A stretch of 64,000 nt of DNA, taken from assembly GCF_000092125.1 (NCBI RefSeq), contig NC_014214.1, positions 1-64,000 on the forward strand, written 5' to 3'. Positions 40,649 through 60,149 of the stretch are shown here, piece by piece; position 1 is the stretch's first letter; the number at the start of each line of letters is the position of its first letter. Source of the stretch: Allomeiothermus silvanus DSM 9946. GTDB taxonomy: Bacteria > Deinococcota > Deinococci > Deinococcales > Thermaceae. Position numbers and translations under genes: made by a program. The notes below the pieces were generated by a model, which did not search any database, was not told the origin of the DNA, and was given only the letters and a program-made list of their open reading frames with translations.

Positions 40649-41782
40649 ATGACCACTCGAGGTACAGCCAGCGTAGCGTTCACGGACCTGCTGTTGCAGG
40701 CCATGGACATGGAAGCCAGCGACGTCATCCTCAAGCCGGGGATGGCCCCGATTGCCCGGGTACACGGGGAGCTGCGCCCGATCCCCTGGACCGAGCGGGA
40801 GTACTTCCAGGGCAACGAGATCGAGGACGCCATCCGGGCCCTGCTCAACCTGGGCGACAGCGAAAGCCCCCTGGGGCAGCGGCATCCGATGGAGAACGAG
40901 CGGGAGATCCGCTGGAAAGAACAGAAAAGCCTGGACTTTAGCTTCTACCTGCGTCGAGCGGGCCGCTTCCGCGTGCACGTGTACATGGACCGGGGCCGCT
41001 GGTGCGCGGTGATCCGCACCATTCCCTCGGAGATCCGCTCCCTGGAGGAGCTGGGCTTGCCGGAGCAGCTCTTCGATCTGGTGCAAAAGCCCCGGGGGTT
41101 GTTTCTGGTGACCGGGCCTACCGGATCGGGCAAGTCCACCACCCTCAACACCCTGGTGGACTTCCTCAACCAGCACTTCGCCAAGCACATCGTCACCATC
41201 GAGGACCCCATCGAGTTCCACCACGTCGATAAGCGGTCGGTGATCTCCCAGCGCGAGGTGGGCGGGGACACCATCAGCTTCAAACAGGCCCTGAAGGACG
41301 CTTTGCGGGAGAACCCCGACGTGATCCTGGTGGGGGAGATGCGCGACCTGGAGACCATCGCGGCGGCCCTGACCGCCGCCGAGACCGGCCACCTGGTCAT
41401 GGGCACGCTGCACACCAAAGGGGCTCCCGACACCATCTCGCGCATCCTGGACGCTTTCCCGCCGGAACAGCAGGCCCAGGTGGCGGTGCAGCTGGCCTCC
41501 AACCTGGTGGGGGTGGTCAGCCAGCAGCTGGTTCCCCGGGCCGATAAGCCGGGGCGGATTGCGGCCTACGAGCTGCTGATCAACAACCCCGCCGTGGCCA
41601 ACAACATCCGCGAACGCAAGGGGGCCAACGAGATGCGCTCCAACCTCTCCACCGCCCGCGAGGTCTTCGTCCAGATGGACGCCAGCCTGGCCAACCTGGT
41701 GAAGCGGGGGATCATCAGCCTGGCGGCAGCCGAGGCACGCGCTTATGAACCCAAGGAAATCCACCGACTCATCAACCTCTAA
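40649..41782 (+). CDS. pilT: type IV pilus retraction ATPase PilT
   Basis: Protein of 377 residues. N-terminal PAS-like part (TDLLLQAMDMEASDVILKPG), Walker A VTGPTGSGKSTTLN (near 156), Asp box VTIEDPIEFHH, Walker B DVILVGEMRDLETIAAAL, His box TGHLVMGTLHTKGAPDTISR and ILDAFPPEQQAQVAVQLASN. The family's AIREHREG-type C-terminal motif is replaced by RERKGANEMRSNL. It would depolymerise the pilus, enabling twitching or DNA uptake. SD AGGAGAAACG before ATG 40649. The 3' end overlaps pilM-N by 38 bp. Confidence 0.92.
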   Translation: MTTRGTASVAFTDLLLQAMDMEASDVILKPGMAPIARVHGELRPIPWTEREYFQGNEIEDAIRALLNLGDSESPLGQRHPMENEREIRWKEQKSLDFSFYLRRAGRFRVHVYMDRGRWCAVIRTIPSEIRSLEELGLPEQLFDLVQKPRGLFLVTGPTGSGKSTTLNTLVDFLNQHFAKHIVTIEDPIEFHHVDKRSVISQREVGGDTISFKQALKDALRENPDVILVGEMRDLETIAAALTAAETGHLVMGTLHTKGAPDTISRILDAFPPEQQAQVAVQLASNLVGVVSQQLVPRADKPGRIAAYELLINNPAVANNIRERKGANEMRSNLSTAREVFVQMDASLANLVKRGIISLAAAEARAYEPKEIHRLINL

Positions 41783-43274: not shown

Positions 43275-43833
43275 CCTGAAAAAGCTCCCCAAAAGCTCCC
43301 TCAAGCTGGTGGGGATGGGCCTGTTGCTGCTGGCCTGGATAGGGCTGCTGGCCTGGCAGGTGGGCGGGATTTCCCAGCGCCAGCAGGAACTCGCTGCCGC
43401 CCAGGCGGAGCAGCAGCGCCTGGAGGGGGTGCGGGTGCAGAACCAGTCCCTGGAGGAGCGCCTGAAGGCGCTGAGCCAGCGCTGGGAGGCCCAGCGGGTG
43501 CGCCTGCCTCCCAGCGAGGACTACGCCGGGCTGGTACGCCTGATCGGCGACCAGAGCCGGGCGCTGGGGGTGGAGGTGGGGGCGTTGAACCCGGTGGTGG
43601 TGCAGGGAAAGTCGGCCTTCCCCTACCTCAGCACCCCGCTCGAGCTATCCGGCCCGTTCCCTAAAGTTCTGGCTCTCATGAACGCCCTTCAGCAGCAGGG
43701 GAGGGCGATTATCCTGAAGGAAGTGACGGTAGCGCTTGAGGAGGCAGGTAATGTCCGCGCGAAAATGGTTCTCGAGGCCTACTACGAAAAAGGCGACCTC
43801 CCCCCCGCCCATCCGCCCGCCCGCCAGCCCTGA
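43255..43833 (+). CDS. pilO: PilO-like alignment protein
   Basis: Protein of 192 residues: one span (LVGMGLLLLAWIGLLAWQVG), a coiled coil (RQQELAAAQAEQQRLEGVRV), and a ferredoxin-like domain (LPPSEDYAGLVRLIGDQSRA, TPLELSGPFPKVLALMNAL). PilO pairs with PilN in the periplasm. The start ATG 43255 overlaps the pilM-N end by 20 bp and the 3' end overlaps the next gene by 83 bp. Identity rests on layout and position. Confidence 0.82.
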   Translation: MSALSVDLKKLPKSSLKLVGMGLLLLAWIGLLAWQVGGISQRQQELAAAQAEQQRLEGVRVQNQSLEERLKALSQRWEAQRVRLPPSEDYAGLVRLIGDQSRALGVEVGALNPVVVQGKSAFPYLSTPLELSGPFPKVLALMNALQQQGRAIILKEVTVALEEAGNVRAKMVLEAYYEKGDLPPAHPPARQP

Positions 43834-44554
43834 CCGGCGGCGCCGGCTCTGGGCGGCCCTGGCCGGGGCGGTCCTGGTGGGGGCCGTTCTGGTCGGGTGG
43901 AGCTTTCGTCCGGTAGCCCTTCCGACACCGCCCTCGTCGAGCCCGCTCCCCCTGGGTGAACGCTCGCAGAGCGTCCCGAAGGGGATCGTCCCCCCGGGTG
44001 AACCGGCTGTGTCCGTCCCGACAGGGGATCGTCCCCCGGTTGTACGGGTTGTGCCCGTCCCGACAGGGGATCGTCCCCCGGAGCCGGTGGTGCGGGTAAC
44101 CCCAACCCCGAGCGTCCCGGCCCCGGTCGCCACCCCCCCACAGCAGGACACCGGCACCGACCCCTTCCGGGCCTACAGGCAGATCGTGGGGGCCGTACCC
44201 CCCCGTGCGGTTCCTACTCCTCGCCCGCTGGCGGCCCAGACCCAGACCCTTCCCCCGCCGCCGGTCGCCCCGCTGCCGGCCCTGCCGGCTCCCCCCACGG
44301 TCCCCGCGCTCGCTCCATCGGCTCCTAAACCCCGACCCCTCACCTTGCGGGAGCGGCTCCAGGCCTCCGGCTGGACGGCCCTGGCGGTGGGGGTGGGAGC
44401 GGAGCCGGCTGTCCTGCTGAGCCACCGGGGGGAGCGGGGGCTATACCGGGTCGGGGAGACCCTGGAAGAGCGCATCCGCATCGAACGTATAGAGAGCAAC
44501 CGTGTGATCCTGGCCCGGGATGATGAACGGGCAGCGTTGGAGGTTTTGCCTTGA
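43751..44554 (+). CDS. PilP-like pilus protein with repeat-expanded Pro-rich linker
   Basis: Protein of about 267 residues: basic N-terminus, one span (LWAALAGAVLVGAVLVGWSF), a 150-residue Pro-rich linker with PTGDRPP units, and a small C-terminal domain (LYRVGETLEERIRIERIESN, RVILARDDERAALEVLP) like the PilP/GspC HR domain that docks on the secretin. It is placed between pilO and pilQ where PilP (or Thermus PilW) is expected. The linker is built partly from a DNA repeat also found in pilQ. Confidence 0.72.
   Translation: MSARKWFSRPTTKKATSPPPIRPPASPDRRRRLWAALAGAVLVGAVLVGWSFRPVALPTPPSSSPLPLGERSQSVPKGIVPPGEPAVSVPTGDRPPVVRVVPVPTGDRPPEPVVRVTPTPSVPAPVATPPQQDTGTDPFRAYRQIVGAVPPRAVPTPRPLAAQTQTLPPPPVAPLPALPAPPTVPALAPSAPKPRPLTLRERLQASGWTALAVGVGAEPAVLLSHRGERGLYRVGETLEERIRIERIESNRVILARDDERAALEVLP
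43954..44081 (+). repeat. coding repeat family, pilP part
   Basis: Three units with core (ACA)GGGGATCGTCCC and GGTGAAC flanks, encoding PTGDRPP-like peptides. Same family as at 44923-45045. Confidence 0.85.
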
Positions 44555-46572
44555 AGCGAATGGTCGCGTTGGTACTGGCGCTATCCCTGGCGCTCGCCGC
44601 GGGTAGCCTGCCCCCGGGAAAGGCCTACGACACTCCCATCAACGTGGAGGTAAAGGCCGGTATTTCCCTTGGGGATGCTATACGAATTATTGCCAGGAGT
44701 GCGGGTCTGTCGGTGGTGGTGGCGCAGTCCCCCGAGGTGCAGGCCCAGGTCACCCTGGACGTGAAGGGCAAGCCCTTCCGTCAGGTCTGGGAGGGGCTGT
44801 TTATGGGAGCTGCATCCAGCCTGGACTACCGGGTGCTCTCCAGCGGGCTCATCGTGGTGGCTCCCAGGAGCCAGATCGAGGCCTTCGCCCGCTCCAAAGC
44901 CCCGCAGGCTCCAGCCGCCGCCCCCACAGGGGATCGTCCTGCCGGTTCACCGGCGCAGCCGGTCCCGACAGGGGATCGTCCCGCCGGTGAACGCTCGCAG
45001 AGCGTCCCGACAGGGGATCGTCCCTCGGGTGAACCGGCTCAGCCCGCCCCCGCTCCGACCCCGCCCAAGCAGGTGCGGATCTACCCGGCGGAGGACCCCA
45101 CCACCCTGGCCAACCTCCTGAGCAGCCTCCTCCCGGAGGCCCGGGCCTATGCCCTCAGCGCCCCCAAGGCGGTGGTGGTCCAGGCCAGCGAGGCCGATCA
45201 GGCCACCGTGCAGGGCCTGCTGGCGGCCCTGGCCGAACAGTCCAAGCAGGACTCCCCCGCCCCGCCCGCTCCTCCCCAACCCTCCACCCCACCCTCGCCA
45301 CCCTCCACCCCACCCCAGGAAGAACCCCAGGAGGCGGTGCTCTTCCCGGCAGCAGAGGGCGGGCAGGCCCTGGCCCAGGCGGTCGCGCTGCGCTTCAAGG
45401 AGGCCAAAGTGAACTTCCTCGAGCCGCTGCGGGTCCTGCTGGTACAGCTACCCACCTCTCAGACGGCGAAGCTGAAGGAGTTCGTCGGCCAGCTGCTGGC
45501 TACCCGCCCCCCCGAGCCCAAGCCGGTGGAAAAACCCCAGGAAAAGCCCGTAGAGCGCAGCCTGCCTCTGGGATACGCCAAGGCCACCACGGTCATCGAT
45601 CTGGTGGGCAAGCTGCTGCCCGAGAGCAAGGAGGTAGCCCTGGCCGCGGATGAGCGCACCAACACCGTGCTGCTGCGCGGGCCCCAGGCTGCGGTGGCGG
45701 CCATCGAGCGGCTGGTGGGGGACCTGGACCGGCCCATCCCCCAGGTGGACCTTCAGGTCCGGGTCGAGCAACTCAGCAGCAGCAACGGCGACGAGATCGG
45801 AGCGGCGCTGGAGGCGGCCCTGGGGCCTTTGAGCCTGAAGGCCGACCCGGGTAGCGGTCAGTACGGGCTGGGCTTGGAGGTGGGCAAGACCGGGCTCCTG
45901 AAGCTCAACGCCGCCCTCAAGGCTTTGCAGAGCGCGGGCAAGGGGCGCTCCCTGATCGACAGCCGCTTCACGGTCTCCTCCGGGGAGAGCGTCAACCTCT
46001 TGTCCGGCGGCAGCCTGCTGATCCCGCTGACCAGCACCGGCACCGGCGGCAGCAGCGGCGGCACCAGCACCACCGGCCTGCAAAACGTGGAGTTTGGCCT
46101 GGAACTCAAGCTCACCCCCACGGTGATCCCCGGCGACAAGATCCAGCTGGGGGTGAACATCAACCTGGGCTCCGCCCCCACCGTAGGCCCCAACAACTCC
46201 ACCCTGGTGCCCAAGCAGCAGCTGACCTCGAACGTGCTGCTCTCCTCGGGCAACAGCGCGGTGCTGGGCGGGGTCATCTCGGTGGAGGAGAAGGAGTCCC
46301 GCTCGGGGATTCCGGTCCTGATGGACCTCCCGCTGATCGGCGGGCTGTTCTCCCAGACGGTCAAGTCCAGCAGCCAGACCCACCTGCTGATCGTGGTGAC
46401 GGCGGTGAGCCGCCTGCCCGAGGCGGTCAAGCCCGCCTCCATGCCCCAGGCCGCTCCCCCCGCGCCCGCCCCCGCCCAACCGCCAAAGCCTCAGCCTCAA
46501 GCTGCTCCAGCCGCCCCCCCTCCACCTCCGGTCGGCTTTGAGCGCAACGTCCAGGTAGGAGGTCAAAGGTGA
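44551..46572 (+). CDS. pilQ: type IV pilus secretin PilQ
   Basis: Protein of 673 residues: signal peptide (MVALVLALSLALAAGSL), N0/STN domain (VEVKAGISLGDAIRIIARSA), Pro-rich linkers with PTGDRPAG units, a NolW-type domain (YAKATTVIDLVGKLLPESKE) and the secretin core with VEFGLELKLTPTVIPGDKIQ and the hallmark IPVLMDLPLIGGLFSQ. It forms the outer-membrane pore for the pilus. A long Pro-rich C-terminus follows. Start at TTG 44551 (overlaps the previous TGA) or ATG 44560. Confidence 0.92.
   Translation: MKRMVALVLALSLALAAGSLPPGKAYDTPINVEVKAGISLGDAIRIIARSAGLSVVVAQSPEVQAQVTLDVKGKPFRQVWEGLFMGAASSLDYRVLSSGLIVVAPRSQIEAFARSKAPQAPAAAPTGDRPAGSPAQPVPTGDRPAGERSQSVPTGDRPSGEPAQPAPAPTPPKQVRIYPAEDPTTLANLLSSLLPEARAYALSAPKAVVVQASEADQATVQGLLAALAEQSKQDSPAPPAPPQPSTPPSPPSTPPQEEPQEAVLFPAAEGGQALAQAVALRFKEAKVNFLEPLRVLLVQLPTSQTAKLKEFVGQLLATRPPEPKPVEKPQEKPVERSLPLGYAKATTVIDLVGKLLPESKEVALAADERTNTVLLRGPQAAVAAIERLVGDLDRPIPQVDLQVRVEQLSSSNGDEIGAALEAALGPLSLKADPGSGQYGLGLEVGKTGLLKLNAALKALQSAGKGRSLIDSRFTVSSGESVNLLSGGSLLIPLTSTGTGGSSGGTSTTGLQNVEFGLELKLTPTVIPGDKIQLGVNINLGSAPTVGPNNSTLVPKQQLTSNVLLSSGNSAVLGGVISVEEKESRSGIPVLMDLPLIGGLFSQTVKSSSQTHLLIVVTAVSRLPEAVKPASMPQAAPPAPAPAQPPKPQPQAAPAAPPPPPVGFERNVQVGGQR
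44923..45045 (+). repeat. coding repeat family, pilQ part
   Basis: Three more units with core ACAGGGGATCGTCC and GGTGAACGCTCGCAG/GGTTCACCGGCGCAG flanks, in frame within the secretin linker. Confidence 0.85.
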
Positions 46573-47219
46573 AATCTCTTCTGCCAATGCCAATCCTGCT
46601 CTCGGCGCTGACGCTGGCCGTATCGGGTTGTAGCGAACTCGACCGGCTCACCACCCCGCCCCTGGAGATGACGGTGGAACTGAAGTCCCCAGTAGCGGCG
46701 GAGACCACCCTGACCCTCTCGGGCAACGGCCTCAACGAGACCTACACCGACAACGGCACCGGGCTGAGCACCAAGGCCTCGGTCTGGCCGGGTTCGTACA
46801 CGGCCACGCTGAGCCGCCTGAGCGTAGGGCCCATCGTCTACCAGGGAGTCCTGGCCTTCTCCAACGCCAACGGCAACCTCAGCCGTACCGAGAGCCTGGT
46901 CTTCCAGGTGCGCTCCATCGACAGCGGCAAGCTGAAGATCGCCGGCAGCTACCAGGCCGTGACCGGCAGCTTGCAGGTCAAGGCCACCGGGCTGCCTTTT
47001 GGCACCCAGCCCAAGCTGAGCTACCAGGGCGCGGACGGGGTGAAGAAGCCCTTCGACCCTACCCAGCCCGCCTCCTTGAGCCCCGGCAACTACCAGATCG
47101 CCTTTGAGGCGGTGACCGTGGGGGGAAGAACCTACACCCCGAATCCCACCACCATGGTGGTCGCGGTGCAGGCGGGGGCTTACGCTCCAGTGGAAGTGAC
47201 CTACACGGAGGCCCCATGA
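46569..47219 (+). CDS. lipoprotein with two PEGA-like beta repeats
   Basis: Protein of 216 residues with a lipobox (LTLAVSGCSEL) and two ~80-residue beta units: one with VWPGSYTATLSRLSVGPIVY, the second with LSPGNYQIAFEAVTVGGRTY and VAVQAGAYAPVEVTYTEAP. The units match the repeats of the 1501-residue pilin at 52 kb. Being a lipoprotein next to the secretin gene, it may act as a pilotin or as an outer-membrane docking partner of the giant pilin; both are inference. ATG 46569 overlaps the pilQ stop (ATGA-type). Confidence 0.78.
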   Translation: MKSLLPMPILLSALTLAVSGCSELDRLTTPPLEMTVELKSPVAAETTLTLSGNGLNETYTDNGTGLSTKASVWPGSYTATLSRLSVGPIVYQGVLAFSNANGNLSRTESLVFQVRSIDSGKLKIAGSYQAVTGSLQVKATGLPFGTQPKLSYQGADGVKKPFDPTQPASLSPGNYQIAFEAVTVGGRTYTPNPTTMVVAVQAGAYAPVEVTYTEAP

Positions 47220-48103
47220 AACGGGCGGCACCGTGGGTCACCTGCTTGGCCCTGGGCCTGGTCCTGGCCCAGCGGGAGAGCGTGGTGCATAGCCCGGACG
47301 GCTCCCTGGCCCCGCTGGCCTTTGGCCGCCAGACCTGCCTGCGGGTCGTGCAGGGGGAGCGAGCGCTTTCCGGGACGACCTGTGTGGACTTCGAGAGCGG
47401 TGCCGGGGTGCTGAACCTGCGGCTGAACGAAGGCTCCCTGGAGGTTCCCTACCGGGTCGAGCCAGCCCTGGGAGAGGTCAGCTACCTCATTCGCCTGGGG
47501 GAAGGCTGGCGGGCGGCCTCCCCCTCCCTCCAGGCCGCGCCCCCTGCCGCCTCCGCGCAGGTGCTGGCCGAGCAAAGCGCGAAACCGGCTGCGCTGGATC
47601 CCCTGACCCGCCCCGCCCCAGCGGGGGCAGATTCCCTCTCGGGATCGGCTGCGCCGATACGCCTGGGGGCAGATTCCCTCTCGGGATCGGCTGCGCCGAT
47701 ACGCCCGCCGATGGCCGATTCCCTGCGGGAGCGGCTCCTCCCACGGGAGAGTCCGAAGGCTGTGCCCCCTTCGGGGCAGCAGAACGCCATGCGCCCAGAG
47801 ACAGACTCCTCGCTGCTGCCGTACTTCTTCCTGCGCCAGATTCAGGGTAGGTATCAGGTGGCCTACAGCCTGCTGGCCCGCGCCCCCGTCGATACCCCGG
47901 CCAGCGGCATCCGGCTGTTGCTGGACGGCAAGCCCCTCTCGGGCCAGCTCACCCGGCGCACTACCGCGAGCGTCCCCGGGCACCTGGAGCGCGGCCAGGC
48001 CGAGTATGGCTGGATCGACCTGGGGCCTCTCGAGGGAAGCCGCCTCGAGTTGAAGTGGCAGCTGGGAGAGGCCAGCCTGGAGCGGGAGTGGAGGTTGCCC
48101 TGA
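47216..48103 (+). CDS. secreted hypothetical protein with repeat-expanded linker
   Basis: Protein of 295 residues: signal peptide (WVTCLALGLVLAQ), an N-terminal beta domain with a Cys pair (QTCLRVV ... TTCVDFE), a Pro/Ala-rich linker containing GADSLSGSAAPIR twice, and a C-terminal beta domain (YFFLRQIQGRYQVAYSLLAR). It overlaps both neighbours, so it belongs to the pilus operon. No family recognised; a periplasmic pilus accessory is likely. Confidence 0.65.
   Translation: MKRAAPWVTCLALGLVLAQRESVVHSPDGSLAPLAFGRQTCLRVVQGERALSGTTCVDFESGAGVLNLRLNEGSLEVPYRVEPALGEVSYLIRLGEGWRAASPSLQAAPPAASAQVLAEQSAKPAALDPLTRPAPAGADSLSGSAAPIRLGADSLSGSAAPIRPPMADSLRERLLPRESPKAVPPSGQQNAMRPETDSSLLPYFFLRQIQGRYQVAYSLLARAPVDTPASGIRLLLDGKPLSGQLTRRTTASVPGHLERGQAEYGWIDLGPLEGSRLELKWQLGEASLEREWRLP
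47623..47705 (+). repeat. tandem 42-bp coding repeat
   Basis: Two almost identical 42-bp units (starting GGGGGCAGATTCCC) in frame in the linker of the secreted protein. Confidence 0.9.
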
Positions 48104-49305
48104 TGGCCACCTATCGCTACATGGCCCTGGAGGGCGGCCAGCCCCGCTCGGGCACCCTGGAGGCGGCCAGCCGGAGCGGGGTCATCGACGCCCTGAAGCA
48201 GCGGGGGATGGTTCCCCTGGAGGTGGTGGAGGAGAAAGCCGCTTCCCGAACGCTCTTTGCCCGGGGCTACAAGACCCGGGATATCGCCCGCTTCGCCCGG
48301 CTGTTCGCCATCCTGGCCGATTCGGGGATTCGCCCGCACGACATCCTGGAGGTGCTGTCCAAGGACATGAGGCACCCCCGCATGAAGGAGAGCATCGCGG
48401 CCATGGCCCAGGACGTGGGGTCGGGTAGCTCGCTGTACGAGGCCGCGCTGCGCTCGCCGTTCCTCAAGCCCTACGCCGGGCTGGTGCTGTCGGGGGAGAA
48501 GATCGGCAAGATCGGCAGGGTGATGCAGCAGCTATCGGCGTTTTTGGAGCGGGAGGCGGAACTCACAGACGAGATCAAGGGGGCCGTGACCTATCCCATC
48601 GTGGTGATGGTGATCGGCCTCCTCATCACCTACTTTCTCTTCACCGGCCTGGTGCCGGGGTTCGCCTCCACCCTGACCGGCCTGGGCGGTGAGCTGCCGT
48701 TTCTGACCAGGCTCCTCATGCAGATCAGCGCCTTCCTGAGAGGCGCGGGGCTGTTCATTCCCCTCTTCCTGCTGGCCGGGGGGATGGCCTTCCGCTGGTA
48801 CTACAGCCAGCCCCAAGGGCGGCTGCGGGTGGACGGGCTGCTGCTACGGGTGCCGGTGTTCGGCACCCTGCTGCGCGACCGGGCCATATCCAAGGCCATG
48901 CGTACCCTGGCCATGCTCCTCGAGGGGGGCATTCCCATCCTGGAGGCCCTCGAGACGGTATCCAAGTCCACCGGGAACGCCGTGTACGACCAGGTGTTCT
49001 CGGCGATCAAGGAGGAGATCGGCCTGCGGGCCAAGAACGTTTCTGAGGCGTTCCGTACCCAGGAAGCCTATTTCACCGCTGCGGCCATGCAGCAGCTGCG
49101 GGTGGGGGAGCAAAGCTCGCACCTCCCCGAGATGATGAACTACATCGCCGAGGACCACGAGAAAGAGTCCAGCCTGCGAGCGCGGATGCTGCCCAAGGTG
49201 ATCGAGCCGATCTCCATCATCCTCCTGGGGGGCATGGTGGGGTTGATCGTGGCGGGGCTGTTTTTGCCCCTGTTCCAGATGATCAGCACCCTGGGAAAGG
49301 GGTAA
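48103..49305 (+). CDS. pilC: type IV pilus inner-membrane platform protein PilC
   Basis: Protein of 400 residues with two T2SSF domains. Typical segments: YRYMALEGGQPRSGTLEAAS, DIARFARLFAILADSGIRPH, TYPIVVMVIGLLITYFLFTG, KAMRTLAMLLEGGIPILEAL, and the last span ILLGGMVGLIVAGLFLPLFQ. It is the membrane base on which PilB and PilT act. ATG 48103 is taken because it overlaps the previous stop (TGATGG) and starts the conserved MATYRY. Confidence 0.93.
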   Translation: MATYRYMALEGGQPRSGTLEAASRSGVIDALKQRGMVPLEVVEEKAASRTLFARGYKTRDIARFARLFAILADSGIRPHDILEVLSKDMRHPRMKESIAAMAQDVGSGSSLYEAALRSPFLKPYAGLVLSGEKIGKIGRVMQQLSAFLEREAELTDEIKGAVTYPIVVMVIGLLITYFLFTGLVPGFASTLTGLGGELPFLTRLLMQISAFLRGAGLFIPLFLLAGGMAFRWYYSQPQGRLRVDGLLLRVPVFGTLLRDRAISKAMRTLAMLLEGGIPILEALETVSKSTGNAVYDQVFSAIKEEIGLRAKNVSEAFRTQEAYFTAAAMQQLRVGEQSSHLPEMMNYIAEDHEKESSLRARMLPKVIEPISIILLGGMVGLIVAGLFLPLFQMISTLGKG

Positions 49306-49307
49306 CC

Positions 49308-49745
49308 ATGCGCCGTGGATTCACCTTGGTAGAGATGCTGGTGGTGCTGGCCATCATTGGCGTCCTGGCCGCCGCGCTGAGTTTCGGCTTCAGCAGCGCC
49401 CGGCGACAGGCCCTGCTGACCCAGGCCGCCGCCCACGGCGGGGAGGTCAGCATGGCCCTCAACGCTTTTTTGATCCGCAACGTCGATCTAAACCTCGACA
49501 CCTGGACGGCCAGCCTCCCCGCCGGCAGCCTGGCCGGAGCCCCGCCCGCGCTGGCTGGCCTCAGCGGCTTCGACTGCAAGGGCGCGGCCACCCTGACCCC
49601 CAGCGGGATGAGTTCGGGTGGGCAGAGCTGGGCCGCCGCCCCCGATGCGGTGGGCTGTCTCGTCGAGCGGGTGGGCAACCGCTTCCTGGTCCACACCTGG
49701 GTCAGGGACTTGCCCAACCACTTCGTGAACGGTCGCTCTAACTAG
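49308..49745 (+). CDS. type IV prepilin (pilin-like, PilA type)
   Basis: Protein of 145 residues with the class III signal RRGFTLVEMLVVLAIIGVLA (cleavage after Gly, Phe+1, Glu+5) and a C-terminal Cys pair (FDCKGA ... VGCLVE) forming the usual D-loop. It sits directly after pilC. It could be the major pilin of this system or a minor one. No prepilin peptidase gene is seen in the window. Confidence 0.88.
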   Translation: MRRGFTLVEMLVVLAIIGVLAAALSFGFSSARRQALLTQAAAHGGEVSMALNAFLIRNVDLNLDTWTASLPAGSLAGAPPALAGLSGFDCKGAATLTPSGMSSGGQSWAAAPDAVGCLVERVGNRFLVHTWVRDLPNHFVNGRSN

Positions 49746-51577: not shown

Positions 51578-52027
51578 ATGACGCGCAAAGGACTGACCCT
51601 GGTGGAGTTGCTGGTAGTGATGGCGATTATCGGGATACTTATGCCCATCGGGGCGTACTCGCTCAGCAGCTACCGCCAGGCGCAGCAGTGGCGGGCGCAG
51701 GTGGCCAGCCTGGAAGGGCTGCTGCGTACCGGAGGCCAGTACGCCCGCAGCAGCGGTCGCCCGGTGGAGCTGGTGCTCTCCGGCCAGGAGGTATACCTGA
51801 CGGTGGACGGCAATCCGCTGTACGCCCAGGGGGGACGGGAGGTAGCCCCGCACCTGCGGGTACGTTTGGACGGCCACCTACAGGCCAGCAACCAGTCCAG
51901 CGGTACCCTGCTCCGCTGGCGGCCTAGCGGTCGGGTGGAGGGGGTCCGCAGCCTGGAACTCACTCAGGGCAGCCGCCGGGCGGTCTTCTCGCTCTCCCCC
52001 TGGGGCGAACTCGAGGTGGGGCGATGA
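51578..52027 (+). CDS. minor pseudopilin (GspH/FimT type)
   Basis: Protein of 149 residues with prepilin signal RKGLTLVELLVVMAIIGILM and a GspH-like beta domain (RTGGQYARSSGRPVELVLSG, LLRWRPSGRVEGVRSLELTQ). No Cys pair. First gene of the second pilin run; GGAGGAG precedes ATG 51578. Its stop overlaps the giant pilin start (ATGA). Confidence 0.87.
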   Translation: MTRKGLTLVELLVVMAIIGILMPIGAYSLSSYRQAQQWRAQVASLEGLLRTGGQYARSSGRPVELVLSGQEVYLTVDGNPLYAQGGREVAPHLRVRLDGHLQASNQSSGTLLRWRPSGRVEGVRSLELTQGSRRAVFSLSPWGELEVGR

Positions 52028-55000
52028 ACAGACGCGCTTTCACCCTCATCGAGGTTTTGGTGGCCGCCGGAGTCATCCTGCTGGTGGGCAGCTATGTGGG
52101 CCGCCTGGCCCTGGATAGCCGCGAGGTCACCGACCAGGGCCAGCGCCAGACCCAGGCCGCACAGATCCTGGCCCGACTGGGCAAAGAGGCCCAGCGCGGC
52201 AACCCCCAGGTGGTTCCCCCCAGCGGCACCCGCTCGCTGGAGGCGGCCTTTTTGAGCGGCCTGATGGGCCGGGGAGTGGACGGCTACCGCGCCGAGGTAC
52301 GCGCTGCTCCCGGCTCGGACGGCCTGCGCGACTACGCCCTGCGGGTCTGCTGGCCCGAGGGCTGCGTGGAGGGCAACGCGCGGGGCCCGGCTCCTCTGGC
52401 CGGGGTGGCGGGCAACCCGCCCGCCCAGGTGCAGGTGGGCCGAGGGGTGCTGGAGGTGCTGGTGGAGGGGGAGGTAGCCACCCCGCCGGACGTCCACGTG
52501 ACGAGCGGCCCCACCGATCAGCAGGTGCAGCGCTGGGGCCTGACCCGCCTGGAGGGCCTCCCGCCGGGCAGCTACACGGTGACCGCCCTGGGCATCCGTA
52601 CCGACCGCTACACCTATGAGGCTCCCGCTGTGAACAACGCCAGCCTGGGGCCGGGCCAGGGGGCTCGGGCGGTGGTGAGCTACCAGCCCGTGAGCGGGGC
52701 CGTCAGCGTCCAGGTGAGCGCCCCACAAGACACTTCCGTCAGCGCTACCCTCTCCGGGCCCTCGGGAACCTACAGCGTGCGCGAGTCGGGGCTATTCCCC
52801 TACCTCAAGCCCGGCAGCTACACCCTCTCCGCCCCGTCCACCTCCTGCGGCGATTATCAATGTAAAGCCCGCATCGAGGGCTCCCCGGCCCAGGTGGCTC
52901 CCGGCCAGACCCAAAGCCTGACCCTGACCTACGGCTACGCCAGCGGCAACCTGAAGGTGCAGATCCAGGGCCTTTCCGGCGGGGCAGCGGTGGTAGTGCG
53001 GGGTCCCGCCGGGTACGAGCGCAACCTCTCCGGCACCACCCACCTGACCGATCTGGCCCCCGGGGAGTACACCCTCACCCCCCAGGAGGTGCGCTCAGGG
53101 GGCTACACCTACCGCGCCGGGGAGACCCGCGTGAGCGTGCAGGCCGGTCAGACTGCCCAGGCCACCCTGACTTACGCCCCGGTCACCGGACGGCTCAAGG
53201 TCGTGGTCTCGGCCAGCGGTCCCGCCTCGGGACAGGTGCTCCAGGGCAGTCGGGTTCTCCAGAGTTTCGGGGCTTCGGGGGGCGAGTGGGAACTGGACCC
53301 CGGCCCCTACCGGGTGCAGCCTTTGGCCTACACCCAGGACGACATCCGCTACGAAGCCAGCGCCGCCGGGGTGGAAGTCCGCCCCGGACAGACCGCTACC
53401 GTCAACCTCGCCTACGCCCCGGCGACCGCCCTGCTGGACTTCGCCGTGACCGGTCTGCCCCAGGGCACCCTGGCCGCCGCGAGCCTCGCTGGCCCGGGCG
53501 GCTACAGCCAGGGGTTGCCGGCCAGCCGTCGCCTGACCGACCTGGCCCCGGGCGGCTACAGCTTCAGCGCCCAGCCCGTGGCGGCGGGGGGCTACACCTA
53601 CCTCCCCGACCCGGCCTCCCGCAGCCTGACCCTGAGCGCCGGGGGGCGCTACGCCCTCAACCTCAGCTACACCCGGCAGGAGGGCCAGGTCAGCCTCACC
53701 CTCTCCGGTCAGCCCGAGGGGAGCACCCCCGCCGTCCGCCTGCGCCAGGGCGATCAGTCCTACCCCCTGACCCCAGGGAGGAACGCCGGGCTGCCCACCG
53801 GGGACTACACGGTGGAGGCCGCCGCCCTGGTCAAAGACGGCTTCACCTATCTGCCCCAGGCCCGCCCGGAGCGCTTCACCCTGACCCACGGCCAGACCCA
53901 GGATCTCACGGTCAGCTACGTCCGCCAGTCCGGCACCCTGACGGTGGTCCTCGATGGCCTGGGGACGGCTCCGCTGCACCTCAGCGGGCCGATGAACATG
54001 GACCTCCAGCAGGGGGGTAGCTATACCCTGCTGCCGGGCAGCTACACCCTCAGCGCCGATCCCGTAGAGACCGGCGGCTACCGCTACACCCCGGCGGTGG
54101 AGGGAAGCCCCTTCAGCCTGGCGGTGGGCGAAACCCGCACCGTGACCGTGCGCTACCGCCCGACCACGGCCCGCTTGCAGGTAGAGGTGGGCGGGGTAGG
54201 GGGCCTTACCCCGATCACCCTCTCGGGCCCCACCCCCCGCACCCTGGAGGGCAGCGCCACCCTGGAGTACCTGGCTCCGGGCGACTACACCCTCACCCCC
54301 AGCCCGGTGACCCGCGATGAATCCACCCCTTACGGCACCGGGCGGTACACCTACCGGGCCGAAGGCCGCGCCCTGACCCTGACCGCCGGCCAGACCGCCC
54401 AGGCCACCCTCACCTACATCCGCCAGCAGGGGGATCTCCTGGTGGCCCTCTCCGGGCTGCCCAGCGGGGCCGCCGCCCGATTGCGCTTGCAGGGAGGCGG
54501 GCTGGACTACAGCTTCGCGGGGGGCGCTTTGAGCGGCCTGCCCACCGGGAGCTACACCCTGACCCCGGAAGCGGTGCGCGTCGGGGCCTACACCTACCGC
54601 GCCAACCCCCAGAGCTTCACCCTGGCCCACGGGGAGACTCAGGCCCTCACGGTGAACTACCAGGCCGCCTCCGGGGCTTTGCGGGTGAACCTCAGCGGGC
54701 CTTCCGGGATGCCCAGCGCCAGCGCCCGGATCTGGCAGGGCGGCACCCTGGTGACCACCCTGGCCGGCGGGGTGCTGGAAGACCTCGCCCCCGGGAACTA
54801 CCGGGTGGAGCCCCTCATCGTGCGCGACGCGGCGGGCTTCGACTACGCCGCCCCCGAGGCCACCGTCACGGTGGCGGCGGGCCAGACCGCCGAGGTCAAC
54901 CTGGCCTACGTCAAACAGTCGGCCTTCGTCAACCTCAGCGTGAGCGGGGCCCCCAGCGCCTACAGCCTCACCCTCTCCGGGCCGAAGGGATACACCCTCT

Positions 55001-56529
55001 CCGCCCCCGGGAGCTACGAGGTGGCGGTAGGGGCCTACACCGCCAGCGCCCCCGACCTCAACTACAGCGGTTTCCTCTACCGGGCCTCGGTGAACCCGGG
55101 TAGCTTCACCCTGGCTCCCGGGCAGATCCTCGACCTCAGCCTCAGCTACACCAAGCAGGCGGGCCGCTTCCGCTTCACCCTCTCCGGCCTGCCCACCGGA
55201 GCCCAGGCCCCCCTCAGCCTCTCCGGGCCGGGCAGCTACAGCGCCAATCTCCCCAACGGCACCACCACCACCCCTGACCTGGCCCCTGGGGCCTATACCC
55301 TCTCCACCCCGGATCTGGCGGCGGGCGGATACACCTGGCGGGCCTCGGGGAACGCCGGGCGGTACACCCTCGGGGTGGGCGACACCCTGCCGGTGGCCCT
55401 CAGCTACGCCCCCGTCACCGGGCGGGTGCAGGTCATCGTGAGCGGGGTGCCCTCCGGGGCCGCCCCCACCCTGCGCATCGTGCAGGGGGGCGTGCTCTAC
55501 AGCTTCAGCGGCAGCGCCAGCTACGAACTCCCGCCGGGGAGCTACACCTTGCAGGCCGACCCCCTGGCCTCCGGGGGCTATACCTACACGCCCAGCGGAG
55601 CCGGCAGCTTCAGCGTGAGCGCCGGGCAGACCGTGACCCTCTCGGTGGTGTACGCCCCCACCACCGGGCGGCTCCGGGTGGTCACCTCGGGGCTGCCCTT
55701 CGCCCCCGGGTACAGCCTCTCGGGGCCGCAGGGCTACAGCGTCACCCAGGCCGATCAGACCTTCGACGACGTGCCCCCTGGGGTCTACACCGCCTACCCC
55801 AACCCCCGTACCCGGGACGCGGGAGGTGGGGTGATTTACAGCTACACCGCCGCCTCCGCCCAGGCCACCGTCACGGCGGGCCAGACCGCCACCCTCTACG
55901 TGAACTACCGGGCCTCCGGCTCGGTGGTGCTCCAGATCAACCGCACCTCGGGCAACGCCCCCATCGATGTCCGCTTCAACGGCGGCACCTACACCGCGCC
56001 CGGGCGCTACGTGATCAACGGGCTAGCCCCGGGGAGCTACCCGCTGGACATGCGCACCACCTACTGGAACGGCCTGGCCTTCTACCCCAGCGGCCCCAAC
56101 CCGGTTACGGTGAGCCCGGAAAACGCCACCCAGGTCACCGTGACCTACGTGCCGGAGAACCGCGCGGTGCTCAACCTGAGCGTGATCAAGGCGTACTACG
56201 GCTCCGACAACCGTTTCCTCAACACCCCCCCGCCCTCGGTGACCCTGTTGCAAAGCGGATGGTCCTACTACACCGCCGGGGTGGGCAGCTACAGCCTCTC
56301 GCTTTACCCGGGCAACACCTACACCCTGGATAAGGCGGTGGGCTACGAGGTGCAGATCGCCGCCAGCTGTGGCCTGTTCGGTTGCTGGGAGCGGCTGTAC
56401 TGGCAGCTGGGCAGCGTGAGCGGCTTACCCCTGGTACCCTGGGCCGGCGAGGTCTACAGCGCCCAGGTGGTCTGGCGGGCCAAGCGCTGCTACCAGAGTG
56501 GGTTCAACTGGATTTGCGAAACGTACTGA
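52024..56529 (+). CDS. giant minor pilin with about 15 PEGA-like repeats
   Basis: Protein of 1501 residues. Class III signal RRAFTLIEVLVAAGVILLVG, then a ~100-residue pilin-like region with a Cys pair (RVCWPEGCVEG), then from about residue 135 to 1420 some 15 tandem units of about 80 residues. Each unit has a strand SGxLxVxVSGLP, a LxGPxGY turn, a core LAPGxYTLxxxPVxxGGYTY, and an end GQTxxLTVxYxxx. The pattern resembles PEGA/surface beta-sandwich repeats. The C-terminal ~80 residues are distinct and Cys-rich (SCGLFGCWERLYW, KRCYQSGFNWICETY). It is probably exposed as a long rod at the pilus tip, as an adhesin. Far larger than known minor pilins such as ComZ. Confidence 0.88.
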   Translation: MNRRAFTLIEVLVAAGVILLVGSYVGRLALDSREVTDQGQRQTQAAQILARLGKEAQRGNPQVVPPSGTRSLEAAFLSGLMGRGVDGYRAEVRAAPGSDGLRDYALRVCWPEGCVEGNARGPAPLAGVAGNPPAQVQVGRGVLEVLVEGEVATPPDVHVTSGPTDQQVQRWGLTRLEGLPPGSYTVTALGIRTDRYTYEAPAVNNASLGPGQGARAVVSYQPVSGAVSVQVSAPQDTSVSATLSGPSGTYSVRESGLFPYLKPGSYTLSAPSTSCGDYQCKARIEGSPAQVAPGQTQSLTLTYGYASGNLKVQIQGLSGGAAVVVRGPAGYERNLSGTTHLTDLAPGEYTLTPQEVRSGGYTYRAGETRVSVQAGQTAQATLTYAPVTGRLKVVVSASGPASGQVLQGSRVLQSFGASGGEWELDPGPYRVQPLAYTQDDIRYEASAAGVEVRPGQTATVNLAYAPATALLDFAVTGLPQGTLAAASLAGPGGYSQGLPASRRLTDLAPGGYSFSAQPVAAGGYTYLPDPASRSLTLSAGGRYALNLSYTRQEGQVSLTLSGQPEGSTPAVRLRQGDQSYPLTPGRNAGLPTGDYTVEAAALVKDGFTYLPQARPERFTLTHGQTQDLTVSYVRQSGTLTVVLDGLGTAPLHLSGPMNMDLQQGGSYTLLPGSYTLSADPVETGGYRYTPAVEGSPFSLAVGETRTVTVRYRPTTARLQVEVGGVGGLTPITLSGPTPRTLEGSATLEYLAPGDYTLTPSPVTRDESTPYGTGRYTYRAEGRALTLTAGQTAQATLTYIRQQGDLLVALSGLPSGAAARLRLQGGGLDYSFAGGALSGLPTGSYTLTPEAVRVGAYTYRANPQSFTLAHGETQALTVNYQAASGALRVNLSGPSGMPSASARIWQGGTLVTTLAGGVLEDLAPGNYRVEPLIVRDAAGFDYAAPEATVTVAAGQTAEVNLAYVKQSAFVNLSVSGAPSAYSLTLSGPKGYTLSAPGSYEVAVGAYTASAPDLNYSGFLYRASVNPGSFTLAPGQILDLSLSYTKQAGRFRFTLSGLPTGAQAPLSLSGPGSYSANLPNGTTTTPDLAPGAYTLSTPDLAAGGYTWRASGNAGRYTLGVGDTLPVALSYAPVTGRVQVIVSGVPSGAAPTLRIVQGGVLYSFSGSASYELPPGSYTLQADPLASGGYTYTPSGAGSFSVSAGQTVTLSVVYAPTTGRLRVVTSGLPFAPGYSLSGPQGYSVTQADQTFDDVPPGVYTAYPNPRTRDAGGGVIYSYTAASAQATVTAGQTATLYVNYRASGSVVLQINRTSGNAPIDVRFNGGTYTAPGRYVINGLAPGSYPLDMRTTYWNGLAFYPSGPNPVTVSPENATQVTVTYVPENRAVLNLSVIKAYYGSDNRFLNTPPPSVTLLQSGWSYYTAGVGSYSLSLYPGNTYTLDKAVGYEVQIAASCGLFGCWERLYWQLGSVSGLPLVPWAGEVYSAQVVWRAKRCYQSGFNWICETY

Positions 56530-57201: not shown

Positions 57202-58734
57202 ATGCGAAAGTTAAGCGGTCTGACCCTGGTGGAGACCCTGGTGGCCGTGCTCCTGGCGGGGCTGCTGGCTGCCGGGGCGGTGCGGCTTTTGGTGGCCTCC
57301 ACCGACCAGCAGCGAGCCGTGGTGCAGGGCACCAATTTGCAAGCCGACCTGCGCCGGGCGGGGGGCGCGGTGGAGCAGGTCATGCGCGAGCGGCCCTTCC
57401 TGCTGCCCTTGCGGGGCAACCCGGCGGGGCTGGAATACCTGCAAGCCCTGCCGGAGAGCCGCTTCCGGGTGCTGGGGGTGAGTGCCTCGGGCCTCACGGT
57501 GCGCTTCAGCAACCCGGCCTACGACCCCCGCGCCCTGCGCCGGGCGGTGGTGGTGGACTCCGGCGGCAACGGCTACGTCTACACCCTGAGCGGGGTGCAG
57601 GCCCTGGACCCCGCCAGCGGCACCTACGCCCTGGCCGGGACGGCCTGCACCGTTCCGGGCGGAACCGGGCTGCAAGGCATCGGAGCGGCGCGGGCCCGGC
57701 TGGGCAGCGGGGCGGCTCTGGCGAGCTTCGGCGGAAGCGGCGGGCAGGCCGACGCCCTGTACTTCCAGCAGGAGGACGACCCCCCGGAGGTGCTCCTGAG
57801 CGGAAGCGCTCCCCGGCTGCGCTACGCCTACCGGGCTGCGGATGGACAGAGCCTCTACGCCGACGCCCCGGCCCTCTTCCAGACCCAGGGAGGAACCCGC
57901 TACGACCTGGCCGGGGTGGCCCTGGACTTCTCCGTCCGGCAGGGCGAGGGCTCCAAGGAGGCCCGCCGCACGCTGCTGCGCGACCTCACCTTCCAGGCCG
58001 ACGGGGGTCTGGGCTTGCGCTCGTTGGGGTGCAACCCGCTTTCCGCCCCGCCCCCGCTCGCTGCGGGGGACTGGCGCATCGAGATCGCCGGAGTGGACCC
58101 GGGGGTGATGGCCTCGGTGGGGGTGGCGGGCCCCGGCGGCTACCGCCGCACCCTCACCGCCAGCGCCACCCTCTCCGGCCTGGTCCAGGGGACCTACGAG
58201 CTATCGGCCTCGAGCGTGGTGCATCCGGCTCTGCCCTTCGTGCGCTACCGACCCACCCAGCCCGCCGAGGGCAGCAGCCTGGGCGTGGACGTGGGCGGGG
58301 CCAACCGTCCGGTGACTTCGGTGCGCTACCTGCGCGTGCCGGGCGCCTTGCGGGTCGAAGTGCAGGGGCTGCCCGCCGGGCTGAGCGCCCCCCTGCAAGC
58401 CGCCGGCAGCTTCCAGAGCTACCCCTTCAGCCTGGGCAGCGGCGCCCACCGCCTTGCGGTAGAGGCCGGGCGCTACGTCCTGGACTGGGGCAAACTGCCG
58501 GACCCTGGCGGGCGGGGGGAGTGGGTGCCGGACCGAGAGAGCTACGCCGTGGACGTGCCCAGCGACGGGGAGGGAGACGGCGGGGTGGTGTCCTACCGCT
58601 TCGAGAAATACCTGGCCAAGGTCAACCTGAGGGTCAACAACCTGAGCGGGGCCAACGCCTCGCCCAAGGTCTGCCTCTATCCGTCCAACGGCGGCCAGGT
58701 AGACCCCAATGCAACGGTTTATCAATGCCCCTAG
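57202..58734 (+). CDS. PilW-like minor pilin with PEGA-like repeats
   Basis: Protein of 510 residues. Prepilin signal RKLSGLTLVETLVAVLLAGL, a PilW-like domain to about residue 280 (FRVLGVSASGLTVRFSNPAY, GGNGYVYTLSGVQALDPASG), then about two and a half units of the beta repeat seen in the giant pilin (IEIAGVDPGVMASVGVAGPG; LRVEVQGLPAGLSAPLQAAG; VNLRVNNLSGANASPKVCLY). It likely sits with the giant pilin in the tip complex. Ends abruptly at TVYQCP; an SD for the next gene follows at once. Confidence 0.85.
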   Translation: MRKLSGLTLVETLVAVLLAGLLAAGAVRLLVASTDQQRAVVQGTNLQADLRRAGGAVEQVMRERPFLLPLRGNPAGLEYLQALPESRFRVLGVSASGLTVRFSNPAYDPRALRRAVVVDSGGNGYVYTLSGVQALDPASGTYALAGTACTVPGGTGLQGIGAARARLGSGAALASFGGSGGQADALYFQQEDDPPEVLLSGSAPRLRYAYRAADGQSLYADAPALFQTQGGTRYDLAGVALDFSVRQGEGSKEARRTLLRDLTFQADGGLGLRSLGCNPLSAPPPLAAGDWRIEIAGVDPGVMASVGVAGPGGYRRTLTASATLSGLVQGTYELSASSVVHPALPFVRYRPTQPAEGSSLGVDVGGANRPVTSVRYLRVPGALRVEVQGLPAGLSAPLQAAGSFQSYPFSLGSGAHRLAVEAGRYVLDWGKLPDPGGRGEWVPDRESYAVDVPSDGEGDGGVVSYRFEKYLAKVNLRVNNLSGANASPKVCLYPSNGGQVDPNATVYQCP

Positions 58735-58748
58735 GAGGTGTGCGAAGA

Positions 58749-60149
58749 ATGCGACGGTTAAGGTTAATAGGACTGCTGTTGACGCTGGCTACCGGAGGAG
58801 CCCTGGCGGGTGCCTGCGACACCGGTCAGGTTGAGAGGGTGGGGACCAAGACCGAGGTAAACGCCTTCGGGGAGCGCTGCCTGGGCTTCGAGCTGCCCGG
58901 GGACGCCACCGAGGCCAACTACAGCGTTACCGCCCTGAGCGTGCCGTATGCCGTGGGGCGTACCCTGACGCCGCTGAACCGCGGAACGCCGGTCGCCACC
59001 CTGGACCTGCCGGTAAAGCTGGAATCGGGGGGCGTTAAAGACGTTGAGGTGGACTATCGCAACCAGGAGGTGGCCTACCTGCGGGTCAATTTCGAGGTGG
59101 GCGTCCAGGAGGGCACCCTCACCCGCACTCAAGGCGGAAGTTCCCGCGATATCGCCGCTATTCGTCCCGGACTGAACATCACCGCCCCGTGGGTGGTGGG
59201 CTGGCTGGGCACCTTCGGTCTGATCGGCATCTTCGCCTGGCCCAACGCCACCGCTACCTCCACCTACGACGAGGTGGTCCCCCTGAACGCGCCTCCCATC
59301 ACCTACAGCGTGGGCGGGGGCGGGGGGTGCCTGGCCTTCAACGGGACCTGGGACTCGATCACCGTCTACCCCAACCAGCTGCAACCGGGGCGGTTCTACG
59401 AGCTTAAGGTGGGGCTGCGCTGCGGCGGGCTGTTCCAGGGCAACCAGGCCTTCGTGGGCCTGGTTGCCCCGGATCTGATTGGCCTGCGCTGGGAGCGGGA
59501 CGGGGCCTGGCAGAACTCCCCCTTCCCGCCCGGAGGGCTCGGTGTGGACCATCCCCGCTACCCCTTCAGCCGCCTTCTCCCCGATAACACCTATCTCTAC
59601 TGGGAGGTTCCCACCCCCGGCTACTACGCCCACGCGGTGGCTATAGACACCGGGGTCTTCAACACCAAGTCGGCTCCCGTCCAGCCCGGTGTTTCGGTTC
59701 CTTATCGGCTGCGGTCGCTTACCAGTCGTATCGTCCGCGATCCCGATTCGGGGGATTCTACCGAGCTGTCCACCGGCTATGTGGTGTACTCCCTTCCCGA
59801 CCACCCCATTCTGGGCCCGGTAGCGGTCCAGGAGACCTACACCGACTCCGAGACTCCCACCGATGTCACCCTGCTGCGCCTTTTGCCGGGGTCGGATCCG
59901 GTCGAAGGGATCAAGAACTTCACCCTCTCGGATTTCAGCCTGGGCGTCAACTCGGTCACCTACCAGACCCAGACCCAGAGCCAGAACGGGTCCACCGTCA
60001 CCCGCTCGGTCCCCGTCTATAACCTCAACCCGCCCGCCACCCACGACATCGTGATCCGCACCCAGAGCGCGGTGGGCTGTACCTGGGAAGGCCCGAAAAC
60101 CTACTACTGCGGTAGCTACGGTCGGTTCCGGAACGGTGCCTGGCAGTGA
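58749..60149 (+). CDS. secreted protein of the pilus cluster
   Basis: Protein of 466 residues starting at ATG 58749 (SD GGAGGTG): signal peptide RRLRLIGLLLTLATGGALAG, a Cys pair (GACDTGQ ... ERCLGFE), a ~100-residue unit with VKLESGGVKDVEVDYR (the repeat-end pattern), another Cys pair (GGCLAFN ... LRCGGLF) and a Cys-containing tail (VGCTWEGPKTYYCGSYG). Beta-rich. Its last residues resemble the C-terminal Cys/Trp/Tyr segment of the giant pilin. Possibly a tip-associated adhesin. The open frame upstream of 58749 overlaps the pilin gene and is not coding. Confidence 0.78.
   Translation: MRRLRLIGLLLTLATGGALAGACDTGQVERVGTKTEVNAFGERCLGFELPGDATEANYSVTALSVPYAVGRTLTPLNRGTPVATLDLPVKLESGGVKDVEVDYRNQEVAYLRVNFEVGVQEGTLTRTQGGSSRDIAAIRPGLNITAPWVVGWLGTFGLIGIFAWPNATATSTYDEVVPLNAPPITYSVGGGGGCLAFNGTWDSITVYPNQLQPGRFYELKVGLRCGGLFQGNQAFVGLVAPDLIGLRWERDGAWQNSPFPPGGLGVDHPRYPFSRLLPDNTYLYWEVPTPGYYAHAVAIDTGVFNTKSAPVQPGVSVPYRLRSLTSRIVRDPDSGDSTELSTGYVVYSLPDHPILGPVAVQETYTDSETPTDVTLLRLLPGSDPVEGIKNFTLSDFSLGVNSVTYQTQTQSQNGSTVTRSVPVYNLNPPATHDIVIRTQSAVGCTWEGPKTYYCGSYGRFRNGAWQ

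What the first reader, a model, noticed from the sequence alone, without database searches (positions are those of the whole stretch)
52024..56529. A 1501-residue pilin made of about 15 PEGA-like repeats
Seen: a canonical prepilin signal followed by ~15 units of ~80 residues with the core PGxYTLxxxPVxxGGYTY and GQTxxLTVxY, and a separate Cys-rich C-terminal cap. Known: minor pilins are usually 150-600 residues; Thermus ComZ has a tip domain but not such a rod. Inference: a pilus-tip adhesin that extends tens of nanometres.
Basis: partly seen in the sequence, partly recalled or inferred. Interest (0 to 1): 0.87.

Follow-up and report, generated by a model that had tools for sequence, protein, structure and literature searches.

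The report
Giant stalked pilin on thermophile plasmid
A plasmid of the heat-loving bacterium Meiothermus silvanus carries its own set of hair-like pilus genes, and one small tip subunit has been fused to a chain of fifteen linked beta domains ending in a distinct cap, probably a long arm that helps the plasmid's host grip another cell or a surface.

Summary
The gene at 52024-56529 encodes 1501 residues: a type IV prepilin module (residues 1-122), a low-confidence linker, exactly 15 contiguous diverged units of 79-86 residues (139-1378), and a conserved aromatic-rich C-terminal domain. AlphaFold2 predicts a 50-residue pilin helix and all-beta units. The units are not PEGA. They are an undescribed family whose nearest folds are prealbumin/CnaB-like stalk domains of Gram-positive pili, without the conserved lysine that isopeptide bonds need.

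The context changes the interpretation. The window lies on plasmid pMESIL02 (124,421 bp), which carries a second, nearly complete type IV pilus operon together with type IV secretion (DNA transfer) genes. The rod, this operon's PilC and the plasmid's VirB4 occur together in two Calidithermus species, and rod and this PilC in no other of 61 genomes. Related pilus operons with stalk-bearing minor pilins sit on an Oceanithermus plasmid typed as conjugative and on two Deinococcus plasmids. The rod is most likely the GspI/PilV-class tip pilin.

Best reading: a long-reach tip adhesin, probably for mating-pair formation, analogous to IncI PilV but without a shufflon. Adhesin at the tip about 0.75; mating role about 0.55. 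No experiment exists. New variant of a known kind (modular pilin).

The parts
52024..56529 (+). The 1501-residue stalked minor pilin
52024..52389 (+). Pilin module, residues 1-122: prepilin signal, long helix 8-57, small beta sheet, Cys109/Cys114
   Evidence: AlphaFold2 model; structural match to a T2SS pseudopilus chain
52390..52437 (+). Linker, residues 123-138, pLDDT under 50 at 123-136
52438..56157 (+). Stalk: 15 tandem prealbumin/CnaB-like beta units (residues 139-1378)
56158..56526 (+). C-terminal cap domain (residues 1379-1501), mostly beta with one short helix, Trp/Tyr-rich, four Cys
51578..52027 (+). GspH-class prepilin; its stop overlaps the start of the stalked pilin (ATGA)
57202..58734 (+). 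PilW/GspJ-class prepilin carrying 2 units of the same domain
49308..49745 (+). Short prepilin, candidate major pilin
48055..49305 (+). PilC/GspF platform protein
46569..47219 (+). Lipoprotein with the same domain type (2 matches)
47216..48103 (+). Conserved operon gene of unknown function (similar protein on pOCEPR01)
44551..46572 (+). PilQ-like secretin
43736..44554 (+). PilP/GspC-like periplasmic protein (weak match)
   Evidence: PF11356 E 9e-4, below cut-off
43255..43833 (+). PilO
41745..43274 (+). PilM/PilN-like protein (PilN dimerisation domain, below cut-off)
40649..41782 (+). PilT retraction ATPase (above NCBIfam cut-off)
38114..40624 (+). PilB-like extension ATPase with MshEN domains
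37560..38126 (+). Thioredoxin-fold protein with WGCPHC motif, possible disulfide former for the operon
58749..60149 (+). Secreted protein conserved in Calidithermus, next in the operon

Best explanation
The protein is a modular type IV pilin of the GspI/PilV class (Thermus PilA2 position) from a plasmid-encoded type IV pilus. It is assembled through its N-terminal helix by the plasmid's own PilB/PilC/PilMNO/PilQ machine, near the tip and beside the plasmid's ComZ-like and PilW-like pilins. Fifteen prealbumin/CnaB-like domains form a long stalk that holds the aromatic-rich cap away from the fibre. PilT then retracts the pilus and pulls a bound partner closer. Because the pilus genes travel with type IV secretion (DNA transfer) genes, the partner is most likely a recipient cell, so the protein works like the PilV tip adhesin of IncI plasmids. 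Shown: sequence, domain layout, predicted fold, operon, plasmid location, co-occurrence. Inferred: processing, tip position, stalk length, ligand binding, role in mating.
For: Prepilin signal and pilus operon. Predicted pilin helix 8-57 and beta units. Pilin module matches a chain of the XcpGHIJK pseudopilus model, Z 7.9, 105 residues, 22% identity. Gene order GspH-PilV-PilW repeats that of the chromosomal minor pilins, and in Thermus PilA2 is GspI-like and binds the GspK-like ComZ (PMC5131608, PMC6561018). Plasmid identity: contig sizes match PMC3035272. VirD4-like and VirB4-like genes on the same plasmid. Rod and the plasmid's PilC type occur together in Calidithermus roseus and C. chliarophilus only, of 61 genomes; these two also hold its VirB4 type at 76-77%. 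O. profundus pOCEPR01, typed conjugative with MOBC and MPF_T, has a contiguous pilus and type IV secretion cluster with stalk-bearing GspH-, PilV- and PilW-class pilins. D. gobiensis P2 and D. proteolyticus pDEIPR02 are similar. TP114 shows that plasmid type IV pili with a PilV adhesin act in mating (PMC9045228).
Against: No experiment of any kind. No PF03432 or PF08751 relaxase anywhere in the A. silvanus genome; other relaxase types, such as the MOBC typed on pOCEPR01, were not tested. No recognised ligand-binding family in the cap, and its fold was barely tested by the searches. Chain 9a1f_R was not confirmed to be the GspI homologue; its length fits. The same domain also occurs on many lipoproteins without pilins, so the stalk alone does not imply a pilus function.
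Confidence: 0.55

Rival explanations
1. Same pilus-tip adhesin, but for attachment to surfaces or biofilm partners, not for plasmid transfer.
For: M. silvanus is a biofouler that forms biofilms in the paper industry (PMC3035272). The aromatic-rich cap would suit glycan binding. Modular pilins are usually adhesins (PMC8179133).
Against: The pilus genes travel with type IV secretion genes on plasmids in three Thermales genera, and similar clusters are on two Deinococcus plasmids typed MPF_T.
Confidence: 0.25
2. A DNA-capture pilus, a plasmid copy of the Thermus PilA2/ComZ competence tip, used for DNA uptake.
For: ComZ-like DUF4900 protein at plasmid 65307-67064, next to the same pilin classes. 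ComZ binds DNA (PMC6561018).
Against: The chromosome already has minor pilins of this type. The stalk is nearly free of lysine and net charge -3, which does not suggest DNA binding.
Confidence: 0.1
3. A type II secretion-like pseudopilus subunit whose stalk handles secreted substrate.
For: Minor pilins are structurally closest to type II pseudopilins, as reported for Thermus pilins (PMC5131608).
Against: A PilT retraction ATPase above its NCBIfam cut-off and a PilQ-type secretin are in the operon. A 15-domain stalk would not fit a short periplasmic pseudopilus.
Confidence: 0.05
4. A non-functional or assembly-generated long ORF.
For: In a Meiothermus relative (G025) the homologue has lost its pilin part.
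Against: Intact, with all 14 comparable units orthologous in order to C. roseus units (54% against 29% for other pairs) and a conserved cap.
Confidence: 0.02

Closest known systems
Modular type IV pilins (Streptococcus sanguinis PilB/PilC class; PMC8179133)
   Same: Short pilin module at the N-terminus with extra domains grafted on, thought to be displayed at the pilus tip.
   Different: 15 tandem domains plus a cap, 1501 residues. The most extreme multi-domain case named in that 2021 survey is 860 residues with 12 motif copies. This domain family is not in Pfam or NCBIfam above cut-off.
PilV tip adhesin of IncI plasmids (R64, TP114; PMC9045228)
   Same: Minor pilin of a plasmid-encoded type IV pilus on a plasmid that also has DNA-transfer genes; a variable C-terminal part is the binding end.
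   Different: No shufflon inverted repeats around the gene, a different operon (PilB-PilT-PilMNO-PilQ-PilC, with a PilT-family retraction ATPase), a 15-domain stalk, and a different phylum.
Thermus thermophilus PilA2 and ComZ (PMC5131608, PMC6561018)
   Same: Same classes of minor pilin and a ComZ-like DUF4900 partner on the plasmid.
   Different: PilA2 has no stalk; ComZ carries a beta-solenoid inserted in the pilin fold instead.
CnaB/prealbumin-like stalk domains of Gram-positive pilins and adhesins (PitA, BcpA, B. anthracis TIE)
   Same: Fold: Z up to 11.0 over 238 residues with PitA.
   Different: 12-14% identity in the top multi-domain rows, no conserved Lys for isopeptide bonds, no sortase; carried by a type IV pilin.
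PEGA domain
   Same: Short beta domain with Pro-Gly turns, by recollection only.
   Different: No PEGA match in the whole protein or in any of 29 units at E <= 1.

Membership tests
Type IV pilin | Class III signal peptide with Gly/Ala before the cut and Glu5 | tested here: met
   MNRRA|FTLIE; N_methyl 25.4 bits over cut-off (19.5, just below)
Type IV pilin | Extended N-terminal helix of about 50 residues | tested here: met
   Helix 8-57 predicted, block pLDDT 60-81
Type IV pilin | Cut by prepilin peptidase and found in fibres | not testable with these tools
   needs mass spectrometry of pili
Modular pilin | Pilin module plus separate extra domains | tested here: met
GspI/PilV-class minor pilin | Fold and position in the minor pilin cluster | tested here: inconclusive
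   Pseudopilus chain match Z 7.9, chain identity inferred from length; gene order fits; no NCBIfam GspI match
PEGA (PF08308) | Profile match of the repeat unit | tested here: not met
   absent in whole protein and 29 units at E <= 1
CnaB/SpaA prealbumin-like domain | Profile match above cut-off | tested here: not met
   SpaA 23.0 vs 23.1 bits for the whole protein; single units far below
CnaB/SpaA prealbumin-like domain | Fold | tested here: met
   PitA Z 11.0, CnaB2 domain 8bdw Z 8.5 over 81 residues
CnaB/SpaA prealbumin-like domain | Lys-Asn/Asp isopeptide residues (not present in every member) | tested here: not met
   Lys 0.6% of the rod and in no unit column above 30%
IncI PilV with shufflon | Invertible 3' segments | tested here: not met
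   no inverted repeats in or around the gene; single imperfect pair at 58109/58895 in the region
IncI PilV with shufflon | Minor pilin of a type IV pilus on a plasmid with DNA-transfer genes | tested here: met
IncI PilV with shufflon | Needed for mating in liquid | not testable with these tools
   needs mating assays

The most novel reading that the evidence does not exclude
Mobile plasmids of the Deinococcota carry a dedicated type IV pilus linked genetically to their type IV secretion module, in which the core minor pilins (GspH, GspI/PilV, GspJ/PilW) have each been turned into stalked adhesins of different length. This would be a conjugation-assisting type IV pilus in a phylum where none is described in the papers I found, evolved separately from the IncI thin pilus, with reach tuned by domain number (15 in Allomeiothermus, 14 in Calidithermus, about 1-5 per pilin in Oceanithermus and Deinococcus).
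Probability: 0.45. Interest if true: 0.8.

Novelty: new variant of a known kind. Interest (0 to 1): 0.64.

Why it matters
It suggests that plasmids in hot-spring and stress-resistant bacteria carry their own mating pilus with long-arm adhesins, which would give a concrete handle on how DNA moves by contact in a phylum where the studied route (transjugation in Thermus) depends on the recipient's competence system. It also gives a natural series of stalk lengths on one pilin scaffold, useful for testing how far a tip adhesin must reach and how a pilus passes such a long subunit through its secretin.

Tried and rejected
PEGA membership: no match. Shufflon or phase variation: no inverted repeats around the gene and no near-identical tandem DNA. 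Isopeptide cross-linking: lysine too rare. Relatives in viral contigs: none. Direct sequence relatives in solved structures: only chance hits for the full protein, the unit profile and the pilin modules. PilC of this type on collection plasmids at E <= 1e-40: none. Relaxase PF03432 and PF08751 in the genome: none. First AlphaFold alignments A3 and A4 were staggered by overlapping rows and replaced by A5 and A6. The apparent fusion of the C. roseus rod to an alpha/beta hydrolase was not followed and is probably a chimeric contig.

Full report
Observation. The ORF at 52024-56529 (+) encodes 1501 residues. It starts with MNRRAFTLIEVLVAAGV, a class III prepilin signal with Ala before the predicted cut and Glu at mature position 5. 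Pfam N_methyl scores just under cut-off in hmmscan (19.5 vs 21.2 bits) and over it in the genome search (25.4 bits). Exactly 15 contiguous units of 79-86 residues fill residues 139-1378. Leave-one-out profiles give 25-81 bits per unit against at most 7.7 for 200 shuffles. The C-terminal 123 residues are a separate domain rich in Trp (4.9%) and Tyr (9.8%).

Where it is. The contig is 124,421 bp and the genome 3,721,669 bp with a 3,249,394 bp chromosome. The genome paper of Meiothermus silvanus DSM 9946 gives exactly these sizes (PMC3035272), so the window lies on plasmid pMESIL02.

The operon. Going downstream: thioredoxin-fold protein (37560), PilB-like ATPase (38114), PilT (40649, above NCBIfam cut-off), PilM/N-like, PilO, a PilP-like protein, PilQ-like secretin (44551), a lipoprotein with the same domain (46569), a conserved unknown (47216), PilC (48055), a short prepilin (49308), a GspH-class prepilin (51578), the stalked pilin (52024, start overlapping the previous stop), a LRV-repeat protein with no signal peptide seen (56542), a PilW-class prepilin with two of the units (57202) and secreted proteins. 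No prepilin peptidase was recognised among the plasmid genes examined, so the chromosomal one would be needed (inference). A ComZ-like DUF4900 protein lies at plasmid position 65307-67064. The chromosome has its own prepilins and pilus ATPases. The plasmid also carries two VirD4/TraG-like coupling proteins and a VirB4/TraC-like ATPase at 73-88 kb. No PF03432 or PF08751 relaxase was found.

Structure. AlphaFold2 models used alignments of the window's own units and Calidithermus units. Residues 1-388: mean pLDDT 84.1, helix 8-57, small beta sheet to about 120, linker 123-136 under pLDDT 50, then three beta units. Residues 1131-1501: mean pLDDT 91.6, beta apart from one short helix in the cap. 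pTM of 0.57 and 0.66 means the angles between domains are uncertain. The solved structures nearest to the units are Gram-positive pilus and adhesin stalk domains (B. anthracis TIE, PitA, BcpA, GBS52, CnaB2), with Z up to 11.0. The pilin module aligns to chain R of the XcpGHIJK pseudopilus model (Z 7.9, 105 residues, rmsd 2.9, 22% identity). By its length this is probably the GspI homologue XcpI (inference). The rod has 0.6% Lys and no conserved Lys column, so isopeptide bonds as in CnaB domains are unlikely. None of the 29 units tested matches PEGA at E <= 1.

Relatives. Close homologues are in Calidithermus roseus, C. chliarophilus and one Meiothermus. The array is old: all 14 comparable units pair one-to-one and in order with C. 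roseus units (mean identity 54% against 29% for other pairs), and exactly one unit (D13) differs in presence. The plasmid's PilC type is found only in A. silvanus and the two Calidithermus among 61 genomes. The plasmid's VirB4 type is in the same three at 76-77%, and in C. chliarophilus it lies on the same 155,960 bp contig as the rod. The Meiothermus copy has lost the pilin part and has neither this PilC type nor the VirB4: a remnant.

Wider family. The unit is present in 53 of 111 Deinococci genomes searched, mostly in lipoproteins with 1-6 units. Three lines link it to DNA-transfer elements. (1) Oceanithermus profundus plasmid pOCEPR01, typed conjugative with MOBC relaxase and MPF_T, has a contiguous pilus and type IV secretion cluster in which the GspH-, PilV- and PilW-class pilins carry about 5, 3 and 1 units. 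(2) D. gobiensis P2 and D. proteolyticus pDEIPR02, both typed MPF_T, have the same pilus gene order with a PilW-class pilin carrying 3 and 4-5 units. (3) Four Thermus genomes have a 5-6 unit lipoprotein about 10-13 kb from VirB4, and every Thermus genome seen with an array of this size shows this. These four are likely one element type, so they count as about one independent case.

Mechanism. In Thermus, PilA2 (GspI-like) binds ComZ (GspK-like), which is argued to cap the competence pilus (PMC5131608, PMC6561018). The plasmid encodes members of the same classes in a similar order, so the stalked pilin most likely sits at or next to the tip. With about 15 domains the cap would project tens of nanometres (inference; rise not measured). 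PilT would retract the pilus. The link to transfer genes makes recipient-cell capture the best-supported role, as for PilV of IncI plasmids (PMC9045228). Surface or biofilm attachment is the main rival, and the two do not exclude each other.

Novelty. Modular pilins are known; a 2021 survey names an 860-residue protein with 12 motif copies as its most extreme multi-domain case (PMC8179133). [quoted passage not shown]). I found no paper on such a system in the Deinococcota (searches; open-access library only). The case is therefore a new variant of a known kind.

Noticed in passing
window 49738-51410 (-): A DnaB helicase gene and a small gene are inserted on the opposite strand inside the pilus operon, between the short prepilin and the GspH-class prepilin. 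In both Calidithermus the two prepilin genes are adjacent.
   Followed up: partly
window 56542-57192: A LRV-repeat protein without evident signal peptide sits between the stalked pilin and the PilW-class pilin. In C. chliarophilus PilW follows the rod almost directly; in G025 two other genes occupy the place.
   Followed up: partly
G025:C36 13249-25760 (L036, L037): Decayed relative in Meiothermus: rod without its pilin part, one unit with an insert of about 140 residues, and a short ComZ-like fragment followed by toxin-antitoxin-like genes.
   Followed up: partly
L038 15254-19723 (C. roseus): Rod reads in frame from an alpha/beta hydrolase gene at a contig end; probably an assembly chimera.
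   Followed up: no
L096 24732-26987 (pOCEPR01 OCEPR_RS11895): GspH-class prepilin with about 5 units ends in RYCVFVCWWGSWYKVGD, a Cys/Trp-rich tail reminiscent of the cap of the window protein.
   Followed up: partly
plasmid 62848-64494 (-), L032 2848-4494: 548-residue protein with no Pfam or NCBIfam match, conserved next to VirB4 in Thermus and Oceanithermus elements; likely an undescribed transfer component.
   Followed up: partly
plasmid 99721-107262 (-), L033/L034: Large PLD/helicase-like protein and an Eco57I-type methylase, possible restriction or defence locus.
   Followed up: no
window 18498-19355 and 24693-25550: Two copies of a 285-residue ORF whose displayed N- and C-terminal ends are identical, both on the + strand, about 6.2 kb apart (start to start); perhaps a transposase (function not tested).
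   Followed up: no
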